Positions 9,505 to 45,992 of a stretch of DNA of 45,992 nt are shown here, in pieces. Position numbers and translations under genes: made by a program. Position 1 is the first letter of the stretch. Each line of letters opens with the position of its first letter. The DNA lies in NCBI GenBank assembly GCA_027622555.1, contig JAQBYJ010000036.1:1-45992 (forward strand). Direction: 5' to 3'. This DNA comes from Verrucomicrobiota bacterium. GTDB lineage: Bacteria; Verrucomicrobiota; Verrucomicrobiia; Opitutales; UBA2995. A model generated the notes under the pieces. It was not told the DNA's origin, ran no database searches, and saw nothing but the letters and a program-made list of their open reading frames with translations.

Positions 9505-11028
9505 TCATTCCTCCAGCAGAGGAAGAACGATTTTTCTTACTTCCCGTTTAAGTAGTTTTCCGACCGAGCTTTTGGGAAGTTCATCGAGGAAAAACACACG
9601 GCTTGGTGCTTTGAATTTGTTGAGGAAATATTTGGTGTGCTCGATGATTTCATCTTGTGAAGCTTTAGCTCCCTTTCTCAGAGCAATTGCTGCGCAAATG
9701 TCCTCGCCAAATTTTTTACATGGGATGCCGACCACCGCACATTCAGCTACCGAAGGATGTCGATATATGGCTTCCTCAATTTCTCTGGGTGATATGTTTT
9801 CACCACCTTTAATGATAAGGTCCTTCTTTCGATCGGTTATAAAAATATATCCATCTTCATCCAGGTGGCCAATGTCACCGGTATGGAGCCATCCACCAAT
9901 GATGGTATTGCGGGTAGCCTCCTCGTTTTTCCAATAACCCTTCATGACAAAGGGAGCCTTTATGCAAAATTCGCCAGTGCTGCCGGTTGGAATAATTTCA
10001 TTATTGTCATCCTGAACGCAAATTTCAACTCCATCGACTACACGACCGGCAGATCCTGGACGAAAGGCTTCTCCTTCACGATAGGAAGAAATGACACAGG
10101 TGGATTCCGATTGTCCCCATCCTTCAGTGACCACGCAGTTGAACTTCTCTTCAAATTCCAATCGCACTTCATCCGGTAGTGGAGCGCCACCGGAATTTAC
10201 TCGTTCCAGTGAGGAAACATCATACTTATCGAAATCTGGAAAATTGATCAGATAGGAAAACATGGTCGGAACGAAGCTGATCCTCTGCACGCGAAATTTC
10301 TCAATGTCCTCGAACACTTTTTTGGTTTCGAATTGCGGATGAAGCACGTTAACGGTCCCCACTAAACTTCCAATGTTCATCATAAGCACACCATAAACGT
10401 GAGCCAGAGGAAGAACGTTTAGGGTCACGGTTTTAGGCTCAGTCATCAGAAGGTGTTCGCCAGCTTCCGCGTTGGAAATGATATTGTAATGACTTTGCAT
10501 CACACCTTTTGGCTTTCCGGTAGTGCCGGAAGTATAGACTAATAGAGCCAAATCGTCGGAAGCTCGGTCATGTAATCCCTCAATAGGTGAAGCTGCCTCG
10601 ATCTCCTCCCGTATATCTTTTGCTGGCTCAGTTTCGCAATTTCCGGTAACCAGAATATGCTCCAAGCTTGTTAACCCTTTCGCTGCTTCCACAACTTTCG
10701 CGGTCAACTCTTCCGAGGTTATAATCAGGCGCGCTTCGGAGTGTTCCAAAATATAGTTCAGCTCGCACGCAACCAACTGAGGCATAATGGGAAGTATGAC
10801 AGCCCCGATAATCCAGGCAGCCTGGAACGCAGATGTTACTTCTGGGCAGTTATTCATGGTAACCGCCACGACATCGCCTGGTTTCACTCCCTTCCCACGC
10901 AATACTGACGCCAGGCATTGTGCATAGTGCATGCGTTCTATGTTGGTATAGCTCTCTCCTTCAAAATACAGGCAAGTGTATTCACCATACCGCTCCAGGT
11001 TTTCGTAAGCTAGTTGTCCTGCGTTCAA
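9505..11028 (-). CDS. Acyl-CoA ligase (AMP-binding family)
   Basis: A 507-residue ANL enzyme with YTSGTTGKPKGV at residues 165-176. It also has a GWGQSES motif in place of the more common YGxTE, GWLHTGDIG, DRKKDLIIKGGENISPREIE and the C-terminal PKSSVGKLLKRE with the catalytic lysine. It activates a carboxylic acid to acyl-CoA. The frame starts at TTG (11028), because no ATG or GTG lies upstream before a stop; the next ATG, at codon 33, would cut into the N-terminal domain. The SDR at 8657 follows 29 bp later. It is clearly diverged from the ligase at 2412-3983, so the two probably handle different acids. Confidence 0.9.
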   Translation of the reverse strand: MNAGQLAYENLERYGEYTCLYFEGESYTNIERMHYAQCLASVLRGKGVKPGDVVAVTMNNCPEVTSAFQAAWIIGAVILPIMPQLVACELNYILEHSEARLIITSEELTAKVVEAAKGLTSLEHILVTGNCETEPAKDIREEIEAASPIEGLHDRASDDLALLVYTSGTTGKPKGVMQSHYNIISNAEAGEHLLMTEPKTVTLNVLPLAHVYGVLMMNIGSLVGTVNVLHPQFETKKVFEDIEKFRVQRISFVPTMFSYLINFPDFDKYDVSSLERVNSGGAPLPDEVRLEFEEKFNCVVTEGWGQSESTCVISSYREGEAFRPGSAGRVVDGVEICVQDDNNEIIPTGSTGEFCIKAPFVMKGYWKNEEATRNTIIGGWLHTGDIGHLDEDGYIFITDRKKDLIIKGGENISPREIEEAIYRHPSVAECAVVGIPCKKFGEDICAAIALRKGAKASQDEIIEHTKYFLNKFKAPSRVFFLDELPKSSVGKLLKREVRKIVLPLLEE

Positions 11029-11135
11029 TTGACAAATATTTGGGGTTAAACTGAAAGAGAAGAGATTAGGATCTTATTGAATTAAAAAAGTGACAAAGAA
11101 AGAATTAGTTTTTCGACAAGACCACGTCCTCGACT

Positions 11136-11207
11136 CGGCACTGCGAGGACGTAGTCGCCCTGCCTTTTTGTGCAGAATGGTAGGGCTAGAGCATCCTTGC
11201 TCTGCCG
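11136..11207. repeat. Palindromic intergenic repeat (type A)
   Basis: CGGCACTGCGAGGACGTAGT, continuing CGCCCTGCC, is mirrored by GGTAGGGCTAGAGCATCCTT, continuing GCTCTGCCG, across about 14 bp. It lies in the 226-bp space between the acyl-CoA dehydrogenase stop (11255) and the ligase start (11028), both on the minus strand, so it may separate two transcription units. Confidence 0.75.
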
Positions 11208-11254
11208 TCTGCAGTGTAATCAGTAAGGCATTGTTCATTCAGTTTGAGATTAGA

Positions 11255-12367
11255 TTATTCGTCTAAGATGAGCTGAGCAAGAAGTTCCCGATGATAGGAT
11301 TGATCACCAAAAAGAAGCTCATTCGATTTGGCCCGTTTGTAATACAAGTGAAGATCATGCTCCCATGTGAAGCCTATACCTCCGTGAATTTGAATGCCCG
11401 AGTTACCCACCAGGCGAGCGGCTTCTGAACAATAGGCCTTGGCAATGCTGATCGCTTCGTCGGCAGCAGGGTCGTTTTCACTCAAAGCCCAGGCGGCATA
11501 GTAGGTGGCTGATCGCGCGCTTTCATTTGCCAGTAACATATCCGCGCACTGGTGTTGCACGGCTTGGTATGAACCAATGGGCTTATCAAACTGCTGCCTG
11601 GTACGTGCGTATTCGACCGTTGTTTTTAGCGTCCACTCCATTCCTCCGAGCATGTCAGCACAAGCGACGATAATTCCGACTTGCATTGAACGTTTTAGGG
11701 CGTTTTCCGCTGCCACTCCATTTACTAAAACTTGCGCACCTACCTTGTCAAAATCGACCTGATAGTAACGGCGAGTGAGGTCCATTCCTGAAGTCGCGCT
11801 TATGGTGATTCCTTCGGCCGAACTATCCACGGCAGCAACGATTAAATCGTCGCCTTGTCGAGCAACGACCAGAATCGTGTTTGCCGAAGCTGCATCGAGG
11901 ACGAGGATTTTTGAACCAGATAGAACTAAACCGGAGTCACCTGCTTCAGCACTTAGTTGAACGGTCGACGAATCCCAGTTGGAACCCTCTTCCAGCATAG
12001 CAACGGTTGCGATCGATTCACCCAGCGCCAGGCCAGGCAGTAATTTTCCTTTAAGCTCCTCGTTTCCGGAAGCCTCAATCAGAGACGCAGCCCAGGTGGA
12101 TGCGATAAAGGGTGATGGAAAACAAGCTCGGCCCATTTCCTCCGCTACGGCAGCCAGGTCAACGAGACTCAGGTCCAGGCCGTCATAACCTTCAGGTAGC
12201 GTCAATCCCGTCCATCCCTGTTCGGCTACGCCCTTCCAGAGTGCTTTATCATTTCCGTGCTCGGATTCTATTACTTCGCGTACCTTCGTTATCGGGCACT
12301 CCCGTTGGAAGAAAGTCCGTGCAGATTCCTGCAACATTTTTTGGGTTTTAGATAGATCAAAATTCAT
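11255..12367 (-). CDS. Acyl-CoA dehydrogenase, short subunit type
   Basis: A 370-residue flavoprotein of the acyl-CoA dehydrogenase family, slightly shorter than the classical 380-400. The middle beta domain is degenerate, while the C-terminal helical domain is well kept: TRQQFDKPIGSYQAVQH (about 255-270), then 'IQIHGGIGFTWEHDLHLYYKRAK'. The 'GFTWEHD' pattern is typical of one subunit of the heterotetrameric alpha2beta2 dehydrogenases known from actinobacterial steroid side-chain breakdown. The partner would be the 390-residue dehydrogenase at 12878-14050, with one small gene between. Electrons would go to the ETF encoded just upstream. Pairing and substrate are inferred. Confidence 0.9.
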   Translation of the reverse strand: MNFDLSKTQKMLQESARTFFQRECPITKVREVIESEHGNDKALWKGVAEQGWTGLTLPEGYDGLDLSLVDLAAVAEEMGRACFPSPFIASTWAASLIEASGNEELKGKLLPGLALGESIATVAMLEEGSNWDSSTVQLSAEAGDSGLVLSGSKILVLDAASANTILVVARQGDDLIVAAVDSSAEGITISATSGMDLTRRYYQVDFDKVGAQVLVNGVAAENALKRSMQVGIIVACADMLGGMEWTLKTTVEYARTRQQFDKPIGSYQAVQHQCADMLLANESARSATYYAAWALSENDPAADEAISIAKAYCSEAARLVGNSGIQIHGGIGFTWEHDLHLYYKRAKSNELLFGDQSYHRELLAQLILDE

Positions 12368-12433
12368 GTCATTATAGATTCTTAGTTGCTGAGGTATTTA
12401 GTTTCTAAGTATTTGAGAATGTAAGTATATTTG

Positions 12434-12820
12434 CTAGTTTGCATTATCGGAATTGGTACGAATTTTGGAAATCAATGAGCTAAGCATTTTTTCAATTTCG
12501 AGTGTGGATGCATTAAATACATTAAGAACGCCTTTTTCCAAATATCGTAAGTTGCTTGATATTTCCCATTGGGTTTGCAACTCGAATAGTGAGCCTTTCG
12601 AAATCTGGAGGAACCGTATAAAATCCTTATTTGACTTCCTGCCGTATCCTTCGGCGATGTTACTTGGAATGGAAACAGCCGAACGTCGGATCTGCGATGT
12701 GAGTCCGTAAATTTCGGTTGATGGAAAATCTTTTGTAGCTTGGTAAACGGATGTTACCAACACCAAAGATTTTTGCCAAACGATTAAGTCCCGATATGTC
12801 TGTATTCCTTTTTTCTTCAT
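12434..12820 (-). CDS. Four-helix-bundle protein (S23 / 23S rRNA intervening-sequence type)
   Basis: A 128-residue all-helical protein of the S23/IVP family. The hallmark 'TYRDLIVWQKSLVL' opens the first helix, followed by 'YGLTSQIRRSAVSIPSNIAEGYGRKS' in the middle. Relatives sit in rRNA intervening sequences or stand alone; the Avd accessory protein of diversity-generating retroelements has the same fold. Its function is unknown. It has a good ribosome binding site (AAAGGAAA) 5-6 bp before the ATG. It is wedged between two acyl-CoA dehydrogenase genes, flanked on both sides by TTCTTAG/AGAATCT-like repeats, which suggests arrival as a small mobile unit. No reverse transcriptase or 23S rRNA is nearby. 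Confidence 0.85.
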   Translation of the reverse strand: MKKKGIQTYRDLIVWQKSLVLVTSVYQATKDFPSTEIYGLTSQIRRSAVSIPSNIAEGYGRKSNKDFIRFLQISKGSLFELQTQWEISSNLRYLEKGVLNVFNASTLEIEKMLSSLISKIRTNSDNAN

Positions 12821-12837
12821 AATATTTCCTTTCTTGT

Positions 12838-12877
12838 ATTCTTAGAATCTTAGCTCCTTGGAATCTCAGAATCTTGG
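12838..12877. repeat. AGAATCT-type short repeat cluster flanking the four-helix gene
   Basis: The segment contains staggered copies of TTAGAATCTTAG and TTGGAATCTCAGAATCTTGG. The core CTTGGAATCTCAGAATCT is repeated exactly near 17999-18016, and a TTCTTAGAATCTAA copy lies near 24532-24545. Degenerate copies (GATTCTTAG, TTTCTAAG) lie on the other side of the gene at about 12378-12410. Confidence 0.5.
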
Positions 12878-14050
12878 TTAATAGCTGCGAGGCAGTCCCA
12901 GAACACGTTGAGCAATAATGTTTCGTTGGATTTCGCTGGTGCCGGCTTCGATGGTGTTACCTCGGGAACGTAGGTAGGCGTGCGCCCAAAAACCGTCTTC
13001 GAAATCGTGAAGTTGCGCTGCGTCGCCGAGTATTTCCATAGCGGCCTGCACGAAGCGCTGATTCATTTCGCTCCAAAAGATCTTCAAAATTGATCCTTCG
13101 GGACCTGGTGTGGCGTTGTTGGTGATTTTAGACAAAGCCCGATTCGTGGTTAGTTTGAAAATCTCCAACTCGGTATAAATTTGCCCGATTTTTTGGCGGT
13201 TGATCGGATCATCAATCAAGCGTTTCCCACCCGATTTTCTTTCCTTCATGAGCTGGATCAACGAATCCAGGCTTTTCTTGAACCGAATATAAAAGGATGA
13301 ACCAAGATTGGTTCGCTCATTCATTAAAGTGGTAATGGTGATTCGCCATCCATCGTTGAGTTCGCCGATCAGGTTTTTTGCCGGCACGCGGACGTTGGTA
13401 AAAAACATTTCGTTGAAAGCAGATTCACCAGACATTTGGCGGAGAGGTCTGACGGATACGCCTTCGCTCTTCATATCGACGAGTAATGCACTGATTCCCT
13501 TGTGCTTGGGAACATCGTTATCAGTTCGGACGAGCAGTAAACACCAGTCGGCCTCTGCCGCATAACTGGTCCAAATCTTTTGACCGTTTACGATAAATTC
13601 ATCTCCTTCCCGGACAGCCTTGGTCCCCAGTGATGCAACATCACTCCCAGAGTTTGGTTCTGAAAATCCCTGACACCAAATGTGCGTTCCGTTCAGAATC
13701 CGGGGAAGGAAGAACTCTTTTTGTTCTTCGCTGCCCTCGGCCATTATGGTTGGACCGATTAGTCCTTCTCCGATTGTTCCGACACGTTCCGGGGCGTCGA
13801 AGGCGGCCATTTCCTCCATATAAATTCCCGCCTCTATAGGGGTAGTGCCTCTTCCGCCGAATTCTTTAGGCCAGGTTACTCCTGCCCAACCTCCTTCGAA
13901 CATTTTATTTTGCCAGGCTCTGAGGTTGTTCCAGTAATCGGGGTCGTGATCATTCTTTGCCTTGAATGGCTTTTCGGGGAGATTTTCTTTCAGCCACGCG
14001 CGAAGTTCATCGCGGAACTGCTGTTCGCTTTCTGTCAGATTTAGATCCAT
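12878..14050 (-). CDS. Acyl-CoA dehydrogenase, long subunit type
   Basis: A 390-residue complete acyl-CoA dehydrogenase. The N-terminal helical domain contains GWAGVTWPKEFGGRG. The FAD/substrate-contact stretch 'CQGFSEPNSGSDVASLGTKA' and 'NGQKIWTSYA' lie in the middle. The C-terminal 'SRGNTIEAGTSEIQRNIIAQRVLG' is the standard family ending. It makes a trans-2-enoyl-CoA from acyl-CoA and passes electrons to ETF. With the 370-residue dehydrogenase at 11255 it probably forms a heteromeric enzyme. The ETF-oxidoreductase gene lies 63 bp upstream on the same strand. Confidence 0.93.
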   Translation of the reverse strand: MDLNLTESEQQFRDELRAWLKENLPEKPFKAKNDHDPDYWNNLRAWQNKMFEGGWAGVTWPKEFGGRGTTPIEAGIYMEEMAAFDAPERVGTIGEGLIGPTIMAEGSEEQKEFFLPRILNGTHIWCQGFSEPNSGSDVASLGTKAVREGDEFIVNGQKIWTSYAAEADWCLLLVRTDNDVPKHKGISALLVDMKSEGVSVRPLRQMSGESAFNEMFFTNVRVPAKNLIGELNDGWRITITTLMNERTNLGSSFYIRFKKSLDSLIQLMKERKSGGKRLIDDPINRQKIGQIYTELEIFKLTTNRALSKITNNATPGPEGSILKIFWSEMNQRFVQAAMEILGDAAQLHDFEDGFWAHAYLRSRGNTIEAGTSEIQRNIIAQRVLGLPRSY

Positions 14051-38465: not shown

Positions 38466-40820
38466 TCAGAACAACCACGGCCGCGCTTGCTTAATAGCGA
38501 GGTTTCCTTCTGCGGTTATCTTATACTCGATTTCCATCGCAAACCGCTCTTCAGGTGGTGGATTATAAAGCAACTTAAACTTGTCGTGGATGGTTTCAAG
38601 ATAGGACCTGAGCTGATCGATATGTTCCTGGCTCATCAGAAGTTGACCAGATGGGACCTGGTTTGAAAAGCGTACGACCGTAAAGTAGTTGGAATCGTCG
38701 GCATTTAGGAGAATCTCCTCAGGAACCGATTGTGCTTCGGGATTCGTTACCAGATCCTCACCGATCTGTGTATTCAAGTAATAGTTACCCGTTGTCTGGT
38801 AAATGGGATCATCGCTTACGGCTACACCATTGGATTTTTCATCACTGAAGTTGGGATGGAGTAAAACGCCCATTGCGGCCTCAAACTGATCGATGCGATA
38901 AAAGTCCCTCTCTTCGTAGGCACGGAAGTTCCATAGGCTGGCGAATACCTGCTTAATCGACTTTGATAGATGGCCTTCATACGGATGATGCGTGAACGAA
39001 TCATAGAGACCGGCACCACTAAAACCAGGCAGGTCTTCGTTGTTTGTACTGGACCGACACCGAATGGCAGTTCCTTCAGGAAACGAAAGTTGCAGAGCCG
39101 ACAACTCATCGATCATCCACCCAGGCATGAGTCCATCTTCCACGACCTCTCTGAAATCAGTTAACATGGAGATTCGCATATCTACGCTGGCAATAAAGTC
39201 CGGATTTTCTAACATGGACATCACCTGAGTGTAGAAGTCGTTATACTTCATAAACTCATCGTAGAAATAGAACGGCAGAGCAAATCCGTCCGGAATTACT
39301 CCTTCCGGAAACCCAAAAGTTCTTAAGGTGGCCACATTGGCAGCTTTTACTCCAAAGGCATCCAAATCAGTGAATCCAACATCCGATAGAGGACGAAACG
39401 CGGTTATCGAAAGGTTGCGGTCTGGAACCTGAGGTTCGGTTGGACGGAGGTCTTCAAAATGTGCGTTTACTTCTTCCAAAGTTGCTTCACGAATATCATA
39501 TCCATCAATCCGCACATTGAAATAGACATAATTTCCTATTAGATCCTGAATCACCTGATCGTTCAATGCACCCGGAATGTAGGCATTGGGAACTCCATCC
39601 TGAATCGCACGAAGGTTGACGTGAGAGAGCGGTGTTTGAGCAACAGTCGTAATTACCCCAGCGACGCGAGGTAGTTCATTTGGCAAGGTATCGTAGACCA
39701 CCAAATCTCTGGTGGTTGGGCGATCATTCAGTCCCATTATCCGCAATAACCCAAAGCCTTCTGCTATATTAAGTGGGATATAATTTACCCCCAGGAATAA
39801 ATCACCTTCGAGCAAGATTGGAATCCGCGAGGCATCGTAGAGCTCTTTTTCTTGCCAATATAGAGGGAGGGCTGCGTTGGGCATCGGGAAGTAAGAAAAA
39901 TTATTCTCAAGAAGAGGCATGTTTTTGGCCAGAATCTCGTGGCCAAACTGAACATCCTCAAACGAGTAAGAATCGTTCGGTTCAAATTCAAAACGATAGA
40001 TGCCGGTTCCTCCGTCTGCGCGAGCCAGCTTAGGATGATAAATTATTTCTCCCCGCATTTGACCAAGAGTACCTCTGGGAGGGAGACCGACCGCAGTCGC
40101 AAAACGACCATGCGCCCTGTGCGTATTCGTATTCATAAAGAAAACATATGGCTTATCGGTATGAGCATCTATGATATAGAACTTTACGAATTCCAACTCC
40201 CTCAGGTGAGTATCAATTAAAACGTCTAAGCCCTGATAAGAAAGCTGACTAAACGTTTTCTGATCGGGGATCGAGTTTCTTCCATCGTTGATACCGACCT
40301 CAAACGCAGGATTGAGAGGTGCCCTGGCTCCATTGACGGACGCCAGCAATTCGGATACATCGTTTAAACCGTCGTTGTCCAAATCTCCGGGGTTACTCCT
40401 GTCGAACTGCGCAACTCTATAATACCCGGCCTTAGGATGAATCCCCAACGGTTCAGTTATCACTGTAGTTCCTTCTTGGCCGAGGTACATGGATACCGGT
40501 ACTTCATTTTTAATGTCACTCAGGGAGCGACTTAAATACAGCACGTAATAATGCTCCGTAGTTGAAGAAACTTCCAAGCGAATCCGCTTGTCATCTCCAA
40601 TGGAGGCACTTTTTACAACCAGAAGCTCAGGCTCCTGGGCGGACAAATCGTGAAGTGCAATAAAAAGCATGCACAACGCAACCACGCAGGCTACGGATCT
40701 TCTATAAAAGCTTCCTGGACCAAAGCCTTTTAAAGTTAAACCCATCCAGCATGGAAAAGAATCAGATGCATGGCGACCTCTACGATCAAGAGTGATTGAA
40801 GTGCCAGGCCCAGTATACAT
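38466..40820 (-). CDS. Predicted exported PEP-synthase/glucan-water-dikinase-like protein
   Basis: A 784-residue frame (ATG 40820); the ATG at 40745 (codon 26) may be the true start, leaving a signal peptide ([22 protein letters not shown], ending near 61). A beta-rich domain with a calcium-type [13 protein letters not shown] loop (147-159) follows. Residues 385-415 resemble a phosphohistidine swivel domain, with His400 in [10 protein letters not shown], close to the LSHVSxRA site of plant glucan, water dikinases. A C-terminal ATP-grasp (about 485-784) has [32 protein letters not shown] (588-609) and a final EIEY...IKQARPW. Swivel-before-ATP-grasp is the dikinase order, not that of PEP synthase. 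Substrate and phosphate donor outside the cytoplasm are unknown. Confidence 0.8.
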
Positions 40821-41019: not shown

Positions 41020-42993
41020 TTGGAAATTATAGAAATAACTTTAAGGCATTTCAAAACGCTCAAGAAAACTTCGGTCTGGATACTGTTTGGTTATGTTTTC
41101 CCGGTTTATGTGGGATTTGCAGCAGGAGGGATCCGTATTACAGAAATTATGTACCATCCGCTAGACGGTGACGGCATTGATGATACAGAGCTGGAATTTA
41201 TTGAGATCAAAAACATAACTGAGGCACCGGTAGATCTGTCGGTCGCATCTTTCACTGATGGTGTGAATTTTACCTTCGGGCCGAACAGCATTCTGGGAGC
41301 GGGAGGGTATTGGATTTTTGTTTCCAACTTCGAAGCGTTTACCGCTCGTTATCCGGGCGTAACGGTGAAAGGAGAATATACCGGCCAACTGAACAACTCT
41401 GGTGAAACCCTGGAGCTGAGTGACAGAAATGGCGTTTTGTTGGAAGCGGTAAACTATGGGGATATGAGCCCTTGGCCACCGGAAGCTGATGGAGGTGGAA
41501 AATCCCTGGTTAAACGTAATGAAACAGCGATCCCACTTTCCCCGAACGATTCGTTAGCCTGGAGAGCCAGTTTCAACACCCATGGATCTCCCGGAGAGGA
41601 GGATCCCGCACCACTTCCAGGAGATATTCTCGTAAACGAGGTGTTGCCGCATACCGATCTACCGCAGGTAGATTCCATCGAGCTTTATAACCCGACCCAG
41701 ACCCCTGTCGATATCAGCGGCTGGTATATTAGCGATGATTTGGGCGAAGCAAAAAAATACCGGATACCCGACACAACACTTATTCTAGGTGGAGGATACT
41801 TGGTATTCACAGAGACCGAGTTCGCAGCAGAGGCTCAAGGAGATTCCAGCTTCCGGTTCAATAGTCATGGTGACTCAGCTTGGCTGGTCTCTGCCGATGG
41901 CGCTGGTAACCTCACTGGATACACTCACGGCTTCGCGTTTGGAGCTTCGGCCAATGGAGTATCTTTCAGCCGTTATCTTGATTCGGAAGGTATCGAAATC
42001 TTTACCGCTGCGGACACCGTGACATTGGGCAGTGAAAACTCGCCGCCCTTGATTGGCCCCATTGTGATCAACGAGCTCTTGTACAAACAAGGATCAACCG
42101 GTACCGAGTTTCTTGAATTGATAAATGTGACTGATGAAGCCGTACCGCTTTTTGATCCTGATAATCCTCAAAACCTATGGCGTATTAATGGTTTGGGATT
42201 CGAATTTCCTGGCGGTGTTGTTGTTCAGCCGAAGCAGGTCGTTATCGTAGCCAATGTAGAACCGACGGAGTTTCAGGCTGAATATAGTATGCCCATCGGA
42301 GTGCTATTATTCGGACCCTTTGCTGGTAGCCTCGATAATGCAGGTGAACGAATAACCATTCAGCGACCTGATAAGCCAGATGTACTGGAAGGTGGAGAGA
42401 TATTTGTTCCCTATATCGCTGTGGATTCCGTGCGTTATGAAGTCGATCTACCCTGGCCAGTGCCTGATCAAGGTTCCAGCATCGAGAAGATCGGCCGCCA
42501 TCTTTTCGGACAAGAACCTGACAACTGGCAACTTAGCCTGTTGCAGGCAGGCTCACCTGGAATGGCTCAGGATTTGGATTTTTCGACCTGGTTAAGAATG
42601 CACTTTATCGATTCGGAAATCGAGTCTGGATTGGTAGGCTTTGAAGAGGATTTCGACGGAGATGGAGTTCTCAATTTCTGGGAGTATGCTTTTGGCTTGA
42701 ATCCACGCATGTTTCAATCGGCTATAAGCGCAAGGAGCCTGATCGTCGCAGAGTCTGGAAATCAATATCCTGCAATCGCATTCAGGCAACTGATCCAATC
42801 GGATGATCTTATCTACCAAATACAGGAATCTACCGATCTTCTTGTCTGGAACGATGCTACAGATTATCTACAATCCAGCTCGGCGAACAATGGAGACGGA
42901 ACATTGTCTGTTGTGCTTCGTGCTCCAGACCCTTTGGTATCACCGGGTGTTTGGTTCCAACGTCTAAAAATCTTTCTATCAGAACTAAACTAG
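41020..42993 (+). CDS. Exported protein with three lamin-tail domains
   Basis: A 657-residue protein starting at TTG 41020, with a signal peptide (about 13-36). Three lamin-tail domains follow: near 37-160 ('IRITEIMYHP', 'ELEFIEIKNIT'), 200-320 ('GDILVNEVLPHT', 'DSIELYNPT') and 343-475 ('GPIVINELLYKQ', 'TEFLELINVT'). Then comes a calcium-type loop ('DFDGDGVLNFWEYAFGLNP', about 546-564) and a beta-rich C-terminal domain of the kind found on many verrucomicrobial exported proteins. Lamin-tail domains often accompany CotH kinases in bacteria; no CotH motif is present here. It is probably a surface scaffold or substrate for the VTC/DUF4956 proteins encoded directly downstream (4 bp gap). Confidence 0.85.
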   Translation: MEIIEITLRHFKTLKKTSVWILFGYVFPVYVGFAAGGIRITEIMYHPLDGDGIDDTELEFIEIKNITEAPVDLSVASFTDGVNFTFGPNSILGAGGYWIFVSNFEAFTARYPGVTVKGEYTGQLNNSGETLELSDRNGVLLEAVNYGDMSPWPPEADGGGKSLVKRNETAIPLSPNDSLAWRASFNTHGSPGEEDPAPLPGDILVNEVLPHTDLPQVDSIELYNPTQTPVDISGWYISDDLGEAKKYRIPDTTLILGGGYLVFTETEFAAEAQGDSSFRFNSHGDSAWLVSADGAGNLTGYTHGFAFGASANGVSFSRYLDSEGIEIFTAADTVTLGSENSPPLIGPIVINELLYKQGSTGTEFLELINVTDEAVPLFDPDNPQNLWRINGLGFEFPGGVVVQPKQVVIVANVEPTEFQAEYSMPIGVLLFGPFAGSLDNAGERITIQRPDKPDVLEGGEIFVPYIAVDSVRYEVDLPWPVPDQGSSIEKIGRHLFGQEPDNWQLSLLQAGSPGMAQDLDFSTWLRMHFIDSEIESGLVGFEEDFDGDGVLNFWEYAFGLNPRMFQSAISARSLIVAESGNQYPAIAFRQLIQSDDLIYQIQESTDLLVWNDATDYLQSSSANNGDGTLSVVLRAPDPLVSPGVWFQRLKIFLSELN

Positions 42994-42997
42994 AAAA

Positions 42998-43807
42998 ATG
43001 GTACAGAGATTGAAGCTTATAGACCAACCCCTCCGAGTTCGCCACGAGCTTAAGTATATTATTCCTTCGGACAAAGCGGAGGAGATTCGCAATTACATAC
43101 AAATAGTTTGTGATCCAGATCCATTCGCTAAAGGAGATCCTCCCATCTACAAAGTTTCAACCATGCAGCTCGATTCGCCCAATCTGGCGCTTCATCTCGC
43201 AAAAGATAGAAAACAGAAGACCCGGTTTAAACTTCGAGTTCGCACGTACGATTATGACTCGAATGGGACAGTGTTTTTTGAGGTTAAAAGAAAAGAAGAT
43301 CGGTTTATTAGAAAAACGCGTTCGCGGGTACCTATTCAGGACTATTCAGAGCGCTTGTTCGAAAAGCCTTTTGTCATTCCTCACTTCCGGGATGACGACG
43401 AGTATCTGAACCATTATGAGTTTCTCCGCTTAATGAAAATGGCCGACGCGCGGCCCATGGTGCATATTCAGTATGAGCGTGAGTCGTGGATTGGTCAGTC
43501 CAATCCAGATATTCGAATAACCATGGATCGAAATATCCGCTACCGCCGTGCAGAAGGATATAAACTGTTTGATGGTAATGAAAAGGGTTGGCGGGCGATG
43601 GATAGTGAAACGGCCCTCAGACGTTCCTTTGGAGGAGTCATTCTGGAAATTAAATCACCCGGTTATATTTCATCCTGGATATTTTCTTTGGTAAGGAACT
43701 TCGATCTTCAACGAACCGGGTTCTGCAAATACTCGACTGCTATGCGACTCGAGTCGCTCTTCTCTGGACAAACTTATACCGTCGGTTCTGAAAGGTGTAA
43801 TTATTAA
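42998..43807 (+). CDS. VTC-domain polyphosphate polymerase
   Basis: A 269-residue single VTC domain, the catalytic tunnel domain of yeast Vtc4 and its bacterial relatives. Basic and acidic strands lining the tunnel are visible: 'RHELKYIIP' (14-22), 'FKLRVRTY' (77-84), 'FFEVKRK' (93-99), 'YERES' and 'VILEIKSPG'. The family makes inorganic polyphosphate from ATP, or builds/binds polyphosphate. No membrane span is present, so it probably works with the DUF4956 membrane protein 7 bp downstream. The gene starts 4 bp after the lamin-tail gene. Confidence 0.88.
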   Translation: MVQRLKLIDQPLRVRHELKYIIPSDKAEEIRNYIQIVCDPDPFAKGDPPIYKVSTMQLDSPNLALHLAKDRKQKTRFKLRVRTYDYDSNGTVFFEVKRKEDRFIRKTRSRVPIQDYSERLFEKPFVIPHFRDDDEYLNHYEFLRLMKMADARPMVHIQYERESWIGQSNPDIRITMDRNIRYRRAEGYKLFDGNEKGWRAMDSETALRRSFGGVILEIKSPGYISSWIFSLVRNFDLQRTGFCKYSTAMRLESLFSGQTYTVGSERCNY

Positions 43808-43814
43808 TTAAAGT

Positions 43815-44498
43815 ATGGACGTTTTAATCGAAGGACTAGGAGAGATCCGAGCTCAAGGACCCATTGAGATATTAACTTCGCTAGCGCTGAGTCTTTTACT
43901 CGGATCCCTGTTAGCGGCGGTCTATAGATGGACTCATGCCGGGTTCAGCTACTCCCGGTCTTTTGTTCAAACTCAGGTGCTCGCCTGTATCGTAGCGACG
44001 ATCATGATTATAGCGATAGGCAATAACCTGGCGCGTGGCCTGGGAATCCTCGGCGCGTTGGCGATCATCCGATTTCGAACTCCCATTCGAGATCCGAGAG
44101 ACATCATTTTCCTGTTTGCTTCACTCGCAATAGGCATCTCATCGGGATCTGGCATTTACTCTGTCGCAATTCTGGGCACCTTATTTTTTGTTGGCACCGT
44201 ATTGATGCTGAACTGGTCTCCAACTTCCTCCCAGCGTAGACATGAAGGGTTGTTGCGATTTGTAGCACCTGCCGGGAAAGACTTGGAACTACTGCTGTCC
44301 GATATTTTCAAATACTATGCGTCAACAGTTGAAATGGTTGCCATGCGAGAAGCCTCCCAAGGTGTGGATATCGAATACGCTTATCAAGTCTGCCTGTTCG
44401 ACCCATTGCTCCATTCCGAATTTATAGCTACCTTGCAGAATCTGGATGATATCAGAGAAGTGAGTTTTATCATGCAAAGAGAAACGGTGGAGATTTAG
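43815..44498 (+). CDS. DUF4956 membrane protein
   Basis: A 227-residue protein with about four membrane spans in the first 130 residues. The well-kept 'NNLARGLGILGALAIIRFRTPIRDPRDIIFLF' stretch, with its conserved Arg/Asp residues, is the DUF4956 signature. A soluble C-terminal domain of about 90 residues follows. DUF4956 genes are found next to VTC-domain and CotH genes in many bacteria, and the protein is thought to be the membrane partner of the polymerase; its exact role is unproven. It sits 7 bp after the VTC gene and 3 bp before the HlyD gene. Confidence 0.88.
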   Translation: MDVLIEGLGEIRAQGPIEILTSLALSLLLGSLLAAVYRWTHAGFSYSRSFVQTQVLACIVATIMIIAIGNNLARGLGILGALAIIRFRTPIRDPRDIIFLFASLAIGISSGSGIYSVAILGTLFFVGTVLMLNWSPTSSQRRHEGLLRFVAPAGKDLELLLSDIFKYYASTVEMVAMREASQGVDIEYAYQVCLFDPLLHSEFIATLQNLDDIREVSFIMQRETVEI

Positions 44499-44501
44499 TT
44501 C

Positions 44502-45341
44502 ATGCCTGAAACCAAAATATATCGTTTGCCTTCAGCCCAAAAGCGCAGAATTTGGCTTACGCGTAAACTACGGTTTTGGCCGGCCCTTCTTTGGATTCTC
44601 CTCGCCGTGTTCGTGGTTTATGGAATTGGTGGCGCCAGAAATGTCGTTCAAGTATTTGGCGTTGTCGATTATCCAGATATCAGTGTGGCTGCTACAGAAA
44701 CGGGAAAAATCGAGAACATATTTGTAACCGTTGGACAAAAGATTGTCGAAGGCGATGCGCTTATAAAGCTGAGCAGCCTGGAAATAGATTATGAAATTGC
44801 TAGCTTGAAGGCGGATGCGGAAGAAGAGCAACAGGCGACTCAACGTCAGTTTTTTAATACGATGCAAAGTATCAATGCCGACATCCGACAGCTTAAGTTG
44901 CAACAAGCACAAGCTGAAGGAGAACTCGCCATTTTAAAGGAGGAGGGTCGACGTCTGGAAGGGTTGCTTACTCGCAGATTAATTGATGCGGCTGAAGTTG
45001 CCACGAACAGGATGCGGATTGTCTCACTCGAAACAGCGGGCAACAAGTATCCGGAATTTCTCAAAGCACTTGAATCAGAGAAGGCAACGTTAGCATCGTT
45101 AGAAAATAACTCTCCCAAAACCACTGAGGATAATCGGGCAGTCCAGCTTTCTATCCTTCAGGAACGGGCAAAATCGCTTTCCATCTCCGCAAATAATTCA
45201 GGAGTGATTTCCAATGTTTTAAGAAATCCGGGAGACGTGGTTTTGGCTGGAGAAACGGTGCTGGAATTACTGGGATCCGATGCACCTGTTGTTAAGGGAT
45301 TCATTCCGCTCAGCGTTCATGACAGCATACAGCTAGTGTAG
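44502..45341 (+). pseudogene. HlyD-type membrane-fusion adaptor, 3' end cut off by an insertion sequence
   Basis: A 279-residue remnant of a usually 330-450-residue adaptor. An N-terminal membrane anchor (about 24-45), the first lipoyl half with 'VAATETGKIENIFVTVGQKI' (about 62-81), a long coiled-coil hairpin (about 98-220) and the second lipoyl half 'NNSGVISNVLRNPGDVVLAGE' (about 232-252) are present. The beta-barrel domain starts at 'VVKGFIPLSVHDSIQ' and then stops. The last codons (L-V-stop) come from the IS630 end just after a TA at 45334-45335. Such adaptors link inner-membrane machinery to the envelope; here it is the fourth gene of the VTC operon. Confidence 0.8.
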
Positions 45342-45992
45342 TGCGTCAAGCAGTCTGTAACATATCAAGCTTTGCTCGAGCACGCTTTACTTTTTCCAGA
45401 ATGTCCTTCGCGCTGGCGGTCCAGACGAAGGGTTTTGGGGCTGCGTTGTGTTGCTCAATGTAGTTGTTGATTGTGTCGATGAGTTCTGGAACGTTCTTGA
45501 ACACGCCTCTGCGGAGACGCTTGTCAGTGAGGTCGCGAAAAAAGCGCTTGTTGGTGTGAAGTGAATGTGAAAACGTGGATGCCTGGCCAGCCAACTTTTA
45601 ACCTTGGGATGTTTGTGAGTGGCGTAGTTATCGACGATCAGGTGCAGGTCTTTCTCCGCAGGGGTCTGGGTGTCAATGAGCTTCAAAAACTTCAACCATT
45701 CTTGATGCCGATGACGCTTCATGTGTGAACCAATGACGGTTCCATCCAAGGTGTTTAGTGCCGCGAACAAGGTCGTTGTGCCATTGCGCTTGTAGTCATG
45801 CGTCATTGTTCCGGCGCGGCCTTTCTTTATCGGCAGCCCGGGCTGGGTGCGGTCGAGCGCCTGAATCTGACTCTTCTCATCGCAGCTTAAAACCAACGCA
45901 TGCTCCGGAGGGTTCAAATACAAACCCACGACATCTTCGAGTTTCTCTGCAAAATGCTTATCATTGGACAACTTGAAAGTGCGGCTAAGGTG
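45336..45992 (-). mobile_element. IS630-family insertion sequence, right-hand part beyond window
   Basis: The element begins after a TA target dinucleotide at 45334-45335 (or the TA at 45339-45340) inside the HlyD gene and runs off the window. IS630/Tc1 elements insert at TA and duplicate it. The transposase stop codon lies about 10 bp from the element end, as is common in this family. The other end and target duplication lie outside the window. Confidence 0.75.
45346..45992 (-). pseudogene. IS630-family transposase, internally deleted and frameshifted, 5' end off window
   Basis: Reading from the window edge, one frame gives the DDE domain start: first Asp in '[22 protein letters not shown]' and second Asp in '[14 protein letters not shown]', up to '[10 protein letters not shown]' at about 45543. 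The C-terminal '[25 protein letters not shown]' and '[23 protein letters not shown]' continue in another frame (to 45346). The SWLNxVE-type segment that should join them, carrying the catalytic Glu, is missing. Roughly eight to nine codons plus a frame change are lost, so the enzyme cannot be active. The frame is open to the edge; the N-terminal HTH domain is outside. Confidence 0.85.

What the first reader, a model, noticed from the sequence alone, without database searches (positions are those of the whole stretch)
38466..40820. Exported dikinase-like protein with plant glucan-water-dikinase domain order
The sequence shows a signal-peptide-like start, a phosphohistidine-type segment ([10 protein letters not shown], His400) and, after it, a full ATP-grasp with [22 protein letters not shown]-type core and a final IKQARPW. 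In PEP synthase and PPDK the ATP-grasp comes first; in starch-phosphorylating GWD/PWD the histidine domain comes first and its site reads LSHVSxRA. A bacterial exported version would phosphorylate something, perhaps a glycan, outside the cytoplasm, where ATP is scarce. It could instead bind a phosphoryl group from another donor such as polyphosphate.
Basis: partly seen in the sequence, partly recalled or inferred. Interest (0 to 1): 0.82.

Follow-up and report, generated by a model that had tools for sequence, protein, structure and literature searches.

The report
Exported dikinase-like phosphotransferase family
A bacterial gene encodes an enzyme of the kind that moves phosphate from ATP through a histidine to another molecule, but it and its relatives in several phyla carry export signals, so it appears to work outside the cytoplasm, where ATP is scarce, on a target that is not known.

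Summary
The ORF at 38466-40820 (minus strand, 784 aa) has an export-signal start, a linker module of secreted proteins, a conserved middle domain, a phosphohistidine swivel domain (His400) and then a complete ATP-grasp domain. Structure models show a swivel fold at 339-446 (Z 10.9 to rifampin phosphotransferase) and a PEP-synthase-type ATP-grasp at 471-784 (Z 30). His400 and the ATP-contact residues are invariant in 37 aligned sequences. Relatives occur in Verrucomicrobiota, Planctomycetota, Bacteroidota, Poribacteria and Chloroflexota; nearly all with a complete N-terminus have a signal-peptide-like start, and about a dozen carry type IX secretion tails. The histidine-first order and His site resemble glucan, water dikinase (GWD), but trees do not place the family with bacterial GWD-like proteins and no starch-binding domain is found, so it works like GWD without being one. 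Polyphosphate as donor is not supported: the polyphosphate-polymerase neighbour is missing from the nearest relatives. A Streptomyces relative without export signal sits between an ATP-grasp enzyme gene and a transporter gene, so a small molecule is as plausible an acceptor as a glycan. Best reading: an uncharacterised exported dikinase family, substrate unknown.

The parts
38466..40820 (-). ORF of the exported dikinase-like protein, 784 aa (start may be residue 26, ATG at 40743-40745)
40638..40706 (-). Export signal: hydrophobic stretch and A|Q cleavage site, residues 39-61 (...[19 protein letters not shown])
   Evidence: hydropathy scan of all family members; helix 39-58 in the model
40296..40637 (-). 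Variable N-terminal module 62-175: beta-sandwich plus Ca-binding-type D-x-D-x-D-G segment, shared with large multidomain proteins
   Evidence: strands; same module in PKD, P-domain, RCC1 and Big_5 proteins
39807..40295 (-). Conserved middle domain 176-338, candidate acceptor-binding domain; Lys213 and His237 invariant
   Evidence: confident fold, no clear match in PDB; strong matches within the class only in this family
39441..39806 (-). Phosphohistidine swivel domain, about 339-460
   Evidence: VIA-align Z 10.9 (95 aa, rmsd 2.5) to rifampin phosphotransferase swivel, Z 8.6 to PPDK central domain
39621..39623 (-). His400, predicted phospho-carrier, in [11 protein letters not shown]
   Evidence: invariant in 37 of 37; conserved also in the ~1100 aa exported group
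38469..39410 (-). ATP-grasp domain 471-784
   Evidence: PPDK_N E 4e-20; Z 30.1 (290 aa, rmsd 2.5) to 5hv1 and Z 29.9 to PEP synthase 2ols
39345..39347 (-). Lys492, equivalent of Lys22 of RPH and PPDK (ATP phosphates)
   Evidence: alignment; invariant
38997..39062 (-). [22 protein letters not shown], 587-608; Arg589 and Ser608 = Arg117 and Thr136 of RPH-Lm
   Evidence: alignments; invariant
38475..38495 (-). IKQARPW, 776-782 (Q-x-R-P motif ending the ATP-grasp; Glu765 just before it = Glu297 of RPH-Lm)
   Evidence: Q778, R780, P781 invariant

Best explanation
This is an exported phosphotransferase of the swivel dikinase type. Shown by sequence and model: an export signal, an intact ATP-grasp, a swivel domain with an invariant histidine, and a family-specific middle domain, all conserved across several phyla. 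Inferred: after export the ATP-grasp binds ATP; His400 attacks the beta-phosphate; one phosphate leaves as Pi and AMP is released; the swivel domain then carries the phosphoryl group to the middle domain (176-338), where it passes to an acceptor. The acceptor is not identified; a small exported or environmental molecule and a saccharide are about equally plausible. ATP outside the cytoplasm would have to come from leakage or from lysed neighbouring cells.
For: ATP-grasp fold Z 30 to RPH and PEP synthase; swivel fold Z 10.9. Residues whose mutation abolishes or cripples RPH-Lm (Lys22, Arg117, Thr136; PMC4844700) map to Lys492, Arg589 and Ser608, all invariant. His400 invariant in 37 of 37. Export: hydrophobic start in nearly all complete members, Por_Secre_tail in 12 of 37 members with best E 7.6e-13 and TIGR04183 in 11, and an N-terminal module shared with PKD, P-domain and Big_5 proteins. 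No PEP/pyruvate barrel was found.
Against: No activity, acceptor or ATP source has been shown. No conserved gene neighbourhood points to a substrate. The middle domain has no recognised relative with known function. The start codon is unsure, and the nearest relative L004 shows no ATG, GTG or TTG upstream of the hydrophobic stretch in the open frame.
Confidence: 0.6

Rival explanations
1. An exported glycan dikinase: it works like GWD or PWD, phosphorylating an extracellular or periplasmic polysaccharide to open it for degradation or to modify the cell's own matrix.
For: His domain before ATP-grasp as in GWD; GWD1_pHisD is the nearest swivel profile (15 of 37 sequences, best E 0.001; below-cut-off best hits in 369 genomes include three family members); hhalign of swivel against bacterial GWD-like proteins E 1.4e-4 with His on His, none of use against PEP synthase. 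The window also encodes a sulfatase and a GSDH protein.
Against: No carbohydrate-binding domain by Pfam; no glycan-gene neighbourhood; trees do not join it with GWD-like proteins; a Streptomyces homologue of the same layout sits between an ATP-grasp enzyme gene and an MFS gene.
Confidence: 0.2
2. A retired enzyme: the fold is kept as an exported ATP- or phosphate-binding or scaffold protein without phosphotransfer.
For: ATP is scarce outside the cytoplasm; exported ATP-grasp enzymes are not known to me.
Against: All mapped catalytic positions and His400 are invariant over five phyla, which is not expected of a retired enzyme.
Confidence: 0.12
3. Exported phosphotransfer without ATP as normal donor: the phosphohistidine is charged from polyphosphate or from another phosphorylated compound.
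For: A VTC (polyphosphate polymerase) gene lies at 42998-43807 next to the dikinase's divergent neighbour. HpeH, the swivel half of a two-component dikinase, can transfer phosphate between phenols alone (PMC12167813).
Against: VTC is absent from the nearest relatives G381 and G384 and from 12 of 32 carrier genomes, and no VTC homologue was found in the fetched loci around the relatives. The ATP-contact residues are invariant.
Confidence: 0.06
4. An ordinary cytoplasmic PEP synthase or PPDK fragment with a misread N-terminus.
For: NCBIfam's best matches are PEP synthase models.
Against: All far below curated cut-offs (58.7 against 739.75 bits); domain order reversed; no PEP-binding barrel; the genome has two other PPDK_N proteins in frames of 919 and 933 aa; T9SS tails in relatives.
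Confidence: 0.02

Closest known systems
Glucan, water dikinase / phosphoglucan, water dikinase (GWD, PWD)
   Same: Swivel domain before ATP-grasp; SHV-x-x-R-A-type His site; no PEP/pyruvate barrel
   Different: Exported; no CBM45/CBM20-type domain found; swivel below the GWD1_pHisD cut-off; not grouped with bacterial GWD-like proteins in trees; acceptor unknown
Rifampin phosphotransferase (RPH) and the two-component HpeHI/PpsAB phenol dikinases
   Same: ATP-grasp (Z 30) and swivel (Z 10.9) folds; residues equivalent to Lys22, Arg117, Glu297 conserved, Thr136 replaced by Ser
   Different: RPH order is ATP-grasp, substrate domain, swivel; cytoplasmic; different substrate domain
PEP synthase / pyruvate phosphate dikinase
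   Same: ATP-grasp and swivel domains, dikinase chemistry expected
   Different: Order reversed, no PEP/pyruvate barrel, exported
Uncharacterised Streptomyces 'PEP/pyruvate-binding domain-containing protein' (WP_331760287.1)
   Same: Homologous from the middle domain on: middle domain, swivel with TPLSH, then ATP-grasp (hhalign E 2e-37)
   Different: No export signal in the sequence; lies between an ATP-grasp enzyme gene and an MFS transporter gene
Uncharacterised ~1100 aa exported group in Verrucomicrobiota (L047-L051, L057)
   Same: Swivel (TPNSHV) then ATP-grasp, hydrophobic N-terminus; groups with the family (95/96)
   Different: Extra C-terminal part of about 300 aa

Membership tests
Swivel (phosphohistidine) plus ATP-grasp dikinase superfamily | ATP-grasp domain of the PPDK_N kind above curated cut-off | tested here: met
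   72.7 bits against cut-off 27; all 37 members match
Swivel (phosphohistidine) plus ATP-grasp dikinase superfamily | Swivel-fold domain bearing a conserved His | tested here: met
   Z 10.9, 95 aa, rmsd 2.5 to 5hv2 766-867; Z 8.6 to PPDK 394-505; His400 37 of 37
Swivel (phosphohistidine) plus ATP-grasp dikinase superfamily | ATP to AMP + Pi with phosphohistidine intermediate | not testable with these tools
   needs purified protein
GWD/PWD | Phosphohistidine domain N-terminal to the ATP-grasp | tested here: met
   swivel 339-460, ATP-grasp 471-784
GWD/PWD | Swivel domain above the GWD1_pHisD (PF22973) curated cut-off | tested here: not met
   window protein no hit at E 1; best member E 0.001; the three family members found by whole-genome scan all below cut-off
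GWD/PWD | Groups with GWD-like proteins in a tree | tested here: inconclusive
   family joins the ~1100 aa group, GWD-like lies elsewhere at 95/96 and 95/97, but long branches; no plant sequences available
GWD/PWD | Starch-binding module (CBM45 or CBM20) | tested here: not met
   no CBM hit in Pfam for the window protein, none in the top 25 families of the members
GWD/PWD | Phosphorylation of alpha-glucan C6 or C3 | not testable with these tools
   needs enzyme assay
PEP synthase / PPDK | Order ATP-grasp, swivel, PEP/pyruvate barrel | tested here: not met
   order reversed, no PEP-utilizer C-terminal domain; TIGR01418 58.7 against 739.75 bits
Rifampin phosphotransferase | Order ATP-grasp, RIF-binding domain, swivel; NF041857 above cut-off | tested here: not met
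   40.3 against 999 bits; order different
Exported protein | N-terminal signal and, in Bacteroidota, T9SS tail | tested here: met
   hydropathy scan, Por_Secre_tail 12 of 37 members; SignalP itself not available

The most novel reading that the evidence does not exclude
An extracytoplasmic, in Saprospirales cell-surface, dikinase that uses ATP outside the cell, for example ATP released from lysed cells, to phosphorylate an extracellular glycan or small molecule through a phosphohistidine relay; I know of no such bacterial enzyme.
Probability: 0.3. Interest if true: 0.85.

Novelty: new variant of a known kind. Interest (0 to 1): 0.62.

Why it matters
Known dikinases that relay phosphate through a histidine work inside cells or plastids, where ATP is plentiful. 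A conserved exported family with every mapped catalytic residue intact makes a question testable: can bacteria carry out ATP-driven phosphorylation outside the cytoplasm, of what, and with ATP from where. It also shows that the histidine-first order, so far linked mainly with starch phosphorylation, is spread through bacterial proteins that have not been characterised, which bears on the origin of plant GWD.

Tried and rejected
Polyphosphate link through the neighbouring VTC gene: not conserved. CotH kinase partner: CotH is in 30 of 32 carrier genomes and in 7 of 9 strong carriers of the class, against 106 of 369 class genomes, but it is absent from the window's genome and the nearest relatives, and is confounded with kinship. 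Only L028 has an LTD-CotH gene directly upstream. Conserved operon: none found; adjacent genes are housekeeping or unrelated. Fold of the middle domain: the PDB search gave only weak rows (cofilin-like, PPK1, E about 0.06 or weaker, low probability), so inconclusive. Anti-phage role: no PADLOC match. Tat signal and lipobox: patterns not found. Literature: no description of an exported member of this family found in the held library. The Mikkelsen 2004 GWD paper is not held.

Full report
Observation. The ORF lies on the minus strand, 40820 to 38466, 784 aa. Pfam finds PPDK_N at 489-781, E 4e-20, above its cut-off. Against L004 (77% identical) the codon positions differ 141, 86 and 435 times, the mark of a protein under purifying selection.

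Family. A scan of genome contigs and of 384 genomes of the class gave some 37 close full-length or near-full-length relatives (38-79% identity) in Verrucomicrobiota, Planctomycetota, Bacteroidota (Saprospiraceae, Lewinella, Aureispira), Poribacteria and Chloroflexota. Nine of the 384 class genomes carry a strong match. In the alignment of 37 sequences (with one distant member), His400, Lys492, Arg589, Ser590-591, Glu595, Asp596, Gly602-Ala603-Gly604, Ser608, Arg638, Glu765, Gln778, Arg780 and Pro781 never vary.

Export. A hydropathy scan shows a hydrophobic stretch near the N-terminus, followed by an A|Q-like cleavage site, in nearly all members with a complete N-terminus; exposure of an N-terminal Gln after cleavage is reported as the habit of signal peptidase I substrates in Bacteroidetes (abstract of PMC5837995, listed). 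In Bacteroidota members a type IX secretion tail is present: Por_Secre_tail in 12 of 37 members, best E 7.6e-13, and TIGR04183 in 11. The variable N-terminal module of the window protein recurs in proteins with PKD, P-domain, Big_5, TSP3 and RCC1 domains. Other members replace it by an EF-hand segment or Gly-rich linker. SignalP could not be run. The window ORF may start at residue 26, and the nearest relative L004 lacks a usual start codon upstream of the hydrophobic stretch in the open frame, so the exact start is open.

Structure. The full model (pLDDT 85) gives an ATP-grasp at 471-784: Z 30.1 over 290 residues, rmsd 2.5, to rifampin phosphotransferase 5hv1, Z 29.9 to PEP synthase 2ols, Z 22.4 to PPDK 1dik. 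Residues 176-472 folded alone (pLDDT 90) give a swivel domain: Z 10.9 over 95 residues, rmsd 2.5, to the swivel of 5hv2, Z 9.5 to enzyme I of the sugar phosphotransferase system, Z 8.6 to PPDK. Ranges, not residue pairs, are reported, so the equivalence of His400 with His825 of RPH rests on range, on its place at the start of a helix (residues 400-408), and on the shared pattern I/V-T...H with P at His+11 seen against PEP synthases. The alignments put Lys492 on Lys22, Arg589 on Arg117, Ser608 on Thr136 and Glu765 on Glu297 of RPH-Lm. Mutation of the first three abolishes rifampin phosphorylation in RPH-Lm, while Glu297Ala does not (PMC4844700). The middle domain 176-338 folds with confidence, has invariant Lys213 and His237, and has no clear PDB match; that is inconclusive, not proof of a new fold. 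Strong matches to it within the class are confined to this family.

Comparison with GWD. GWD needs a conserved histidine of its phosphohistidine domain, and no high-resolution structure of GWD or PWD exists (PMC12892837). Verrucomicrobiota do contain GWD-like proteins over the PF22973 cut-off, with SHVAVRARN or SHLGVRSRQ at the site. The exported family falls below that cut-off: 15 of 37 sequences match weakly, best E 0.001, and three members rank among the best sub-threshold hits of 369 genomes. Profile comparison of swivel domains gives 97.7% probability with the ~1100 aa exported group, E 1.4e-4 with GWD-like proteins (histidines aligned) and no useful alignment with PEP synthase; the ATP-grasp scores higher with PEP synthase than with GWD-like proteins. 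Trees put the family and the ~1100 aa group on one side (95/96 and 95/97) and GWD-like, PEP synthase, Streptomyces and L046 sequences on the other; long branches meet, so fine placement is unsafe, and no plant sequences were available. Hence: same layout and His-site type as GWD, but no proof of membership, and two defining features (profile cut-off, starch-binding module) are not met.

Wider relatives. Streptomyces plasmid proteins of about 670 aa align over the middle domain, swivel and ATP-grasp (hhalign E 2e-37), keep TPLSH, have no export signal in the sequence, and lie between an ATP-grasp enzyme gene and an MFS transporter gene in two plasmids. That context suggests small-molecule modification, and it shows that the histidine-first order is not confined to starch enzymes. 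The ~1100 aa group (L047-L051, L057) also looks exported by its sequence.

Neighbourhood. Divergent from the gene are LTD, VTC, DUF4956 and HlyD-like genes. Among the fetched loci a divergent LTD gene is kept only in L005, and an LTD-CotH gene lies directly upstream in L028. VTC is missing in the two nearest relatives and in 12 of 32 carrier genomes. There is no conserved operon. The polyphosphate idea therefore has little support.

Mechanism. By analogy with RPH and HpeHI (PMC4844700, PMC12167813): ATP binds in the grasp, His400 takes the beta-phosphate, Pi and AMP leave, the swivel domain turns to the middle domain, and the acceptor is phosphorylated. Shown here: export signals, folds, invariant residues, domain order. 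Inferred: activity, direction, donor. Unknown: acceptor and ATP source. One carrier is Aureispira sp. CCB-QB1 (L023); a predatory way of life, in which prey lysis frees ATP, is a possible source, but that is my inference and was not tested.

Verdict. I file it as a new variant of a known kind: an uncharacterised exported dikinase-like family.

Noticed in passing
window 41020-45341: Cluster of LTD protein, VTC domain protein, DUF4956 protein and HlyD-like protein, divergent from the dikinase gene; the window's genome has no CotH hit although VTC, DUF4956 and CotH genes often occur together (own knowledge).
   Followed up: partly
L047, L048, L049, L050, L051, L057: A second exported group of about 1100 aa in Verrucomicrobiota with TPNSHV swivel followed by ATP-grasp and an unknown C-terminal part of about 300 aa.
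   Followed up: partly
L122:9527-11539 and L123:9533-11539: Two Streptomyces plasmids carry a homologue of the same layout without export signal between an ATP-grasp enzyme gene and an MFS transporter gene; looks like a small-molecule pathway.
   Followed up: partly
L067, L069, L054, L070: Verrucomicrobiota encode GWD-like proteins above the PF22973 cut-off; genome G191 has two close together on contig C120, perhaps a GWD/PWD-like pair.
   Followed up: no
L019:7977-10478 and 10607-13117: Tandem duplicate of the exported dikinase gene, both copies with the catalytic residues.
   Followed up: no
G120:C67:29411-29790: Remnant of a second copy of the family's middle domain, in short broken frames (one piece with an internal stop).
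   Followed up: no
window 45387-45971: IS630-type transposase ORF at the window's end.
   Followed up: no
G000:C27:10303-10689 and G000:C77:3276-3743: The N-terminal module of the dikinase recurs in two other large multidomain proteins of the same genome.
   Followed up: yes
L004:2330-2420: The nearest relative has no ATG, GTG or TTG in the open frame before the hydrophobic stretch; start codon unusual, or a sequence or frame problem.
   Followed up: partly
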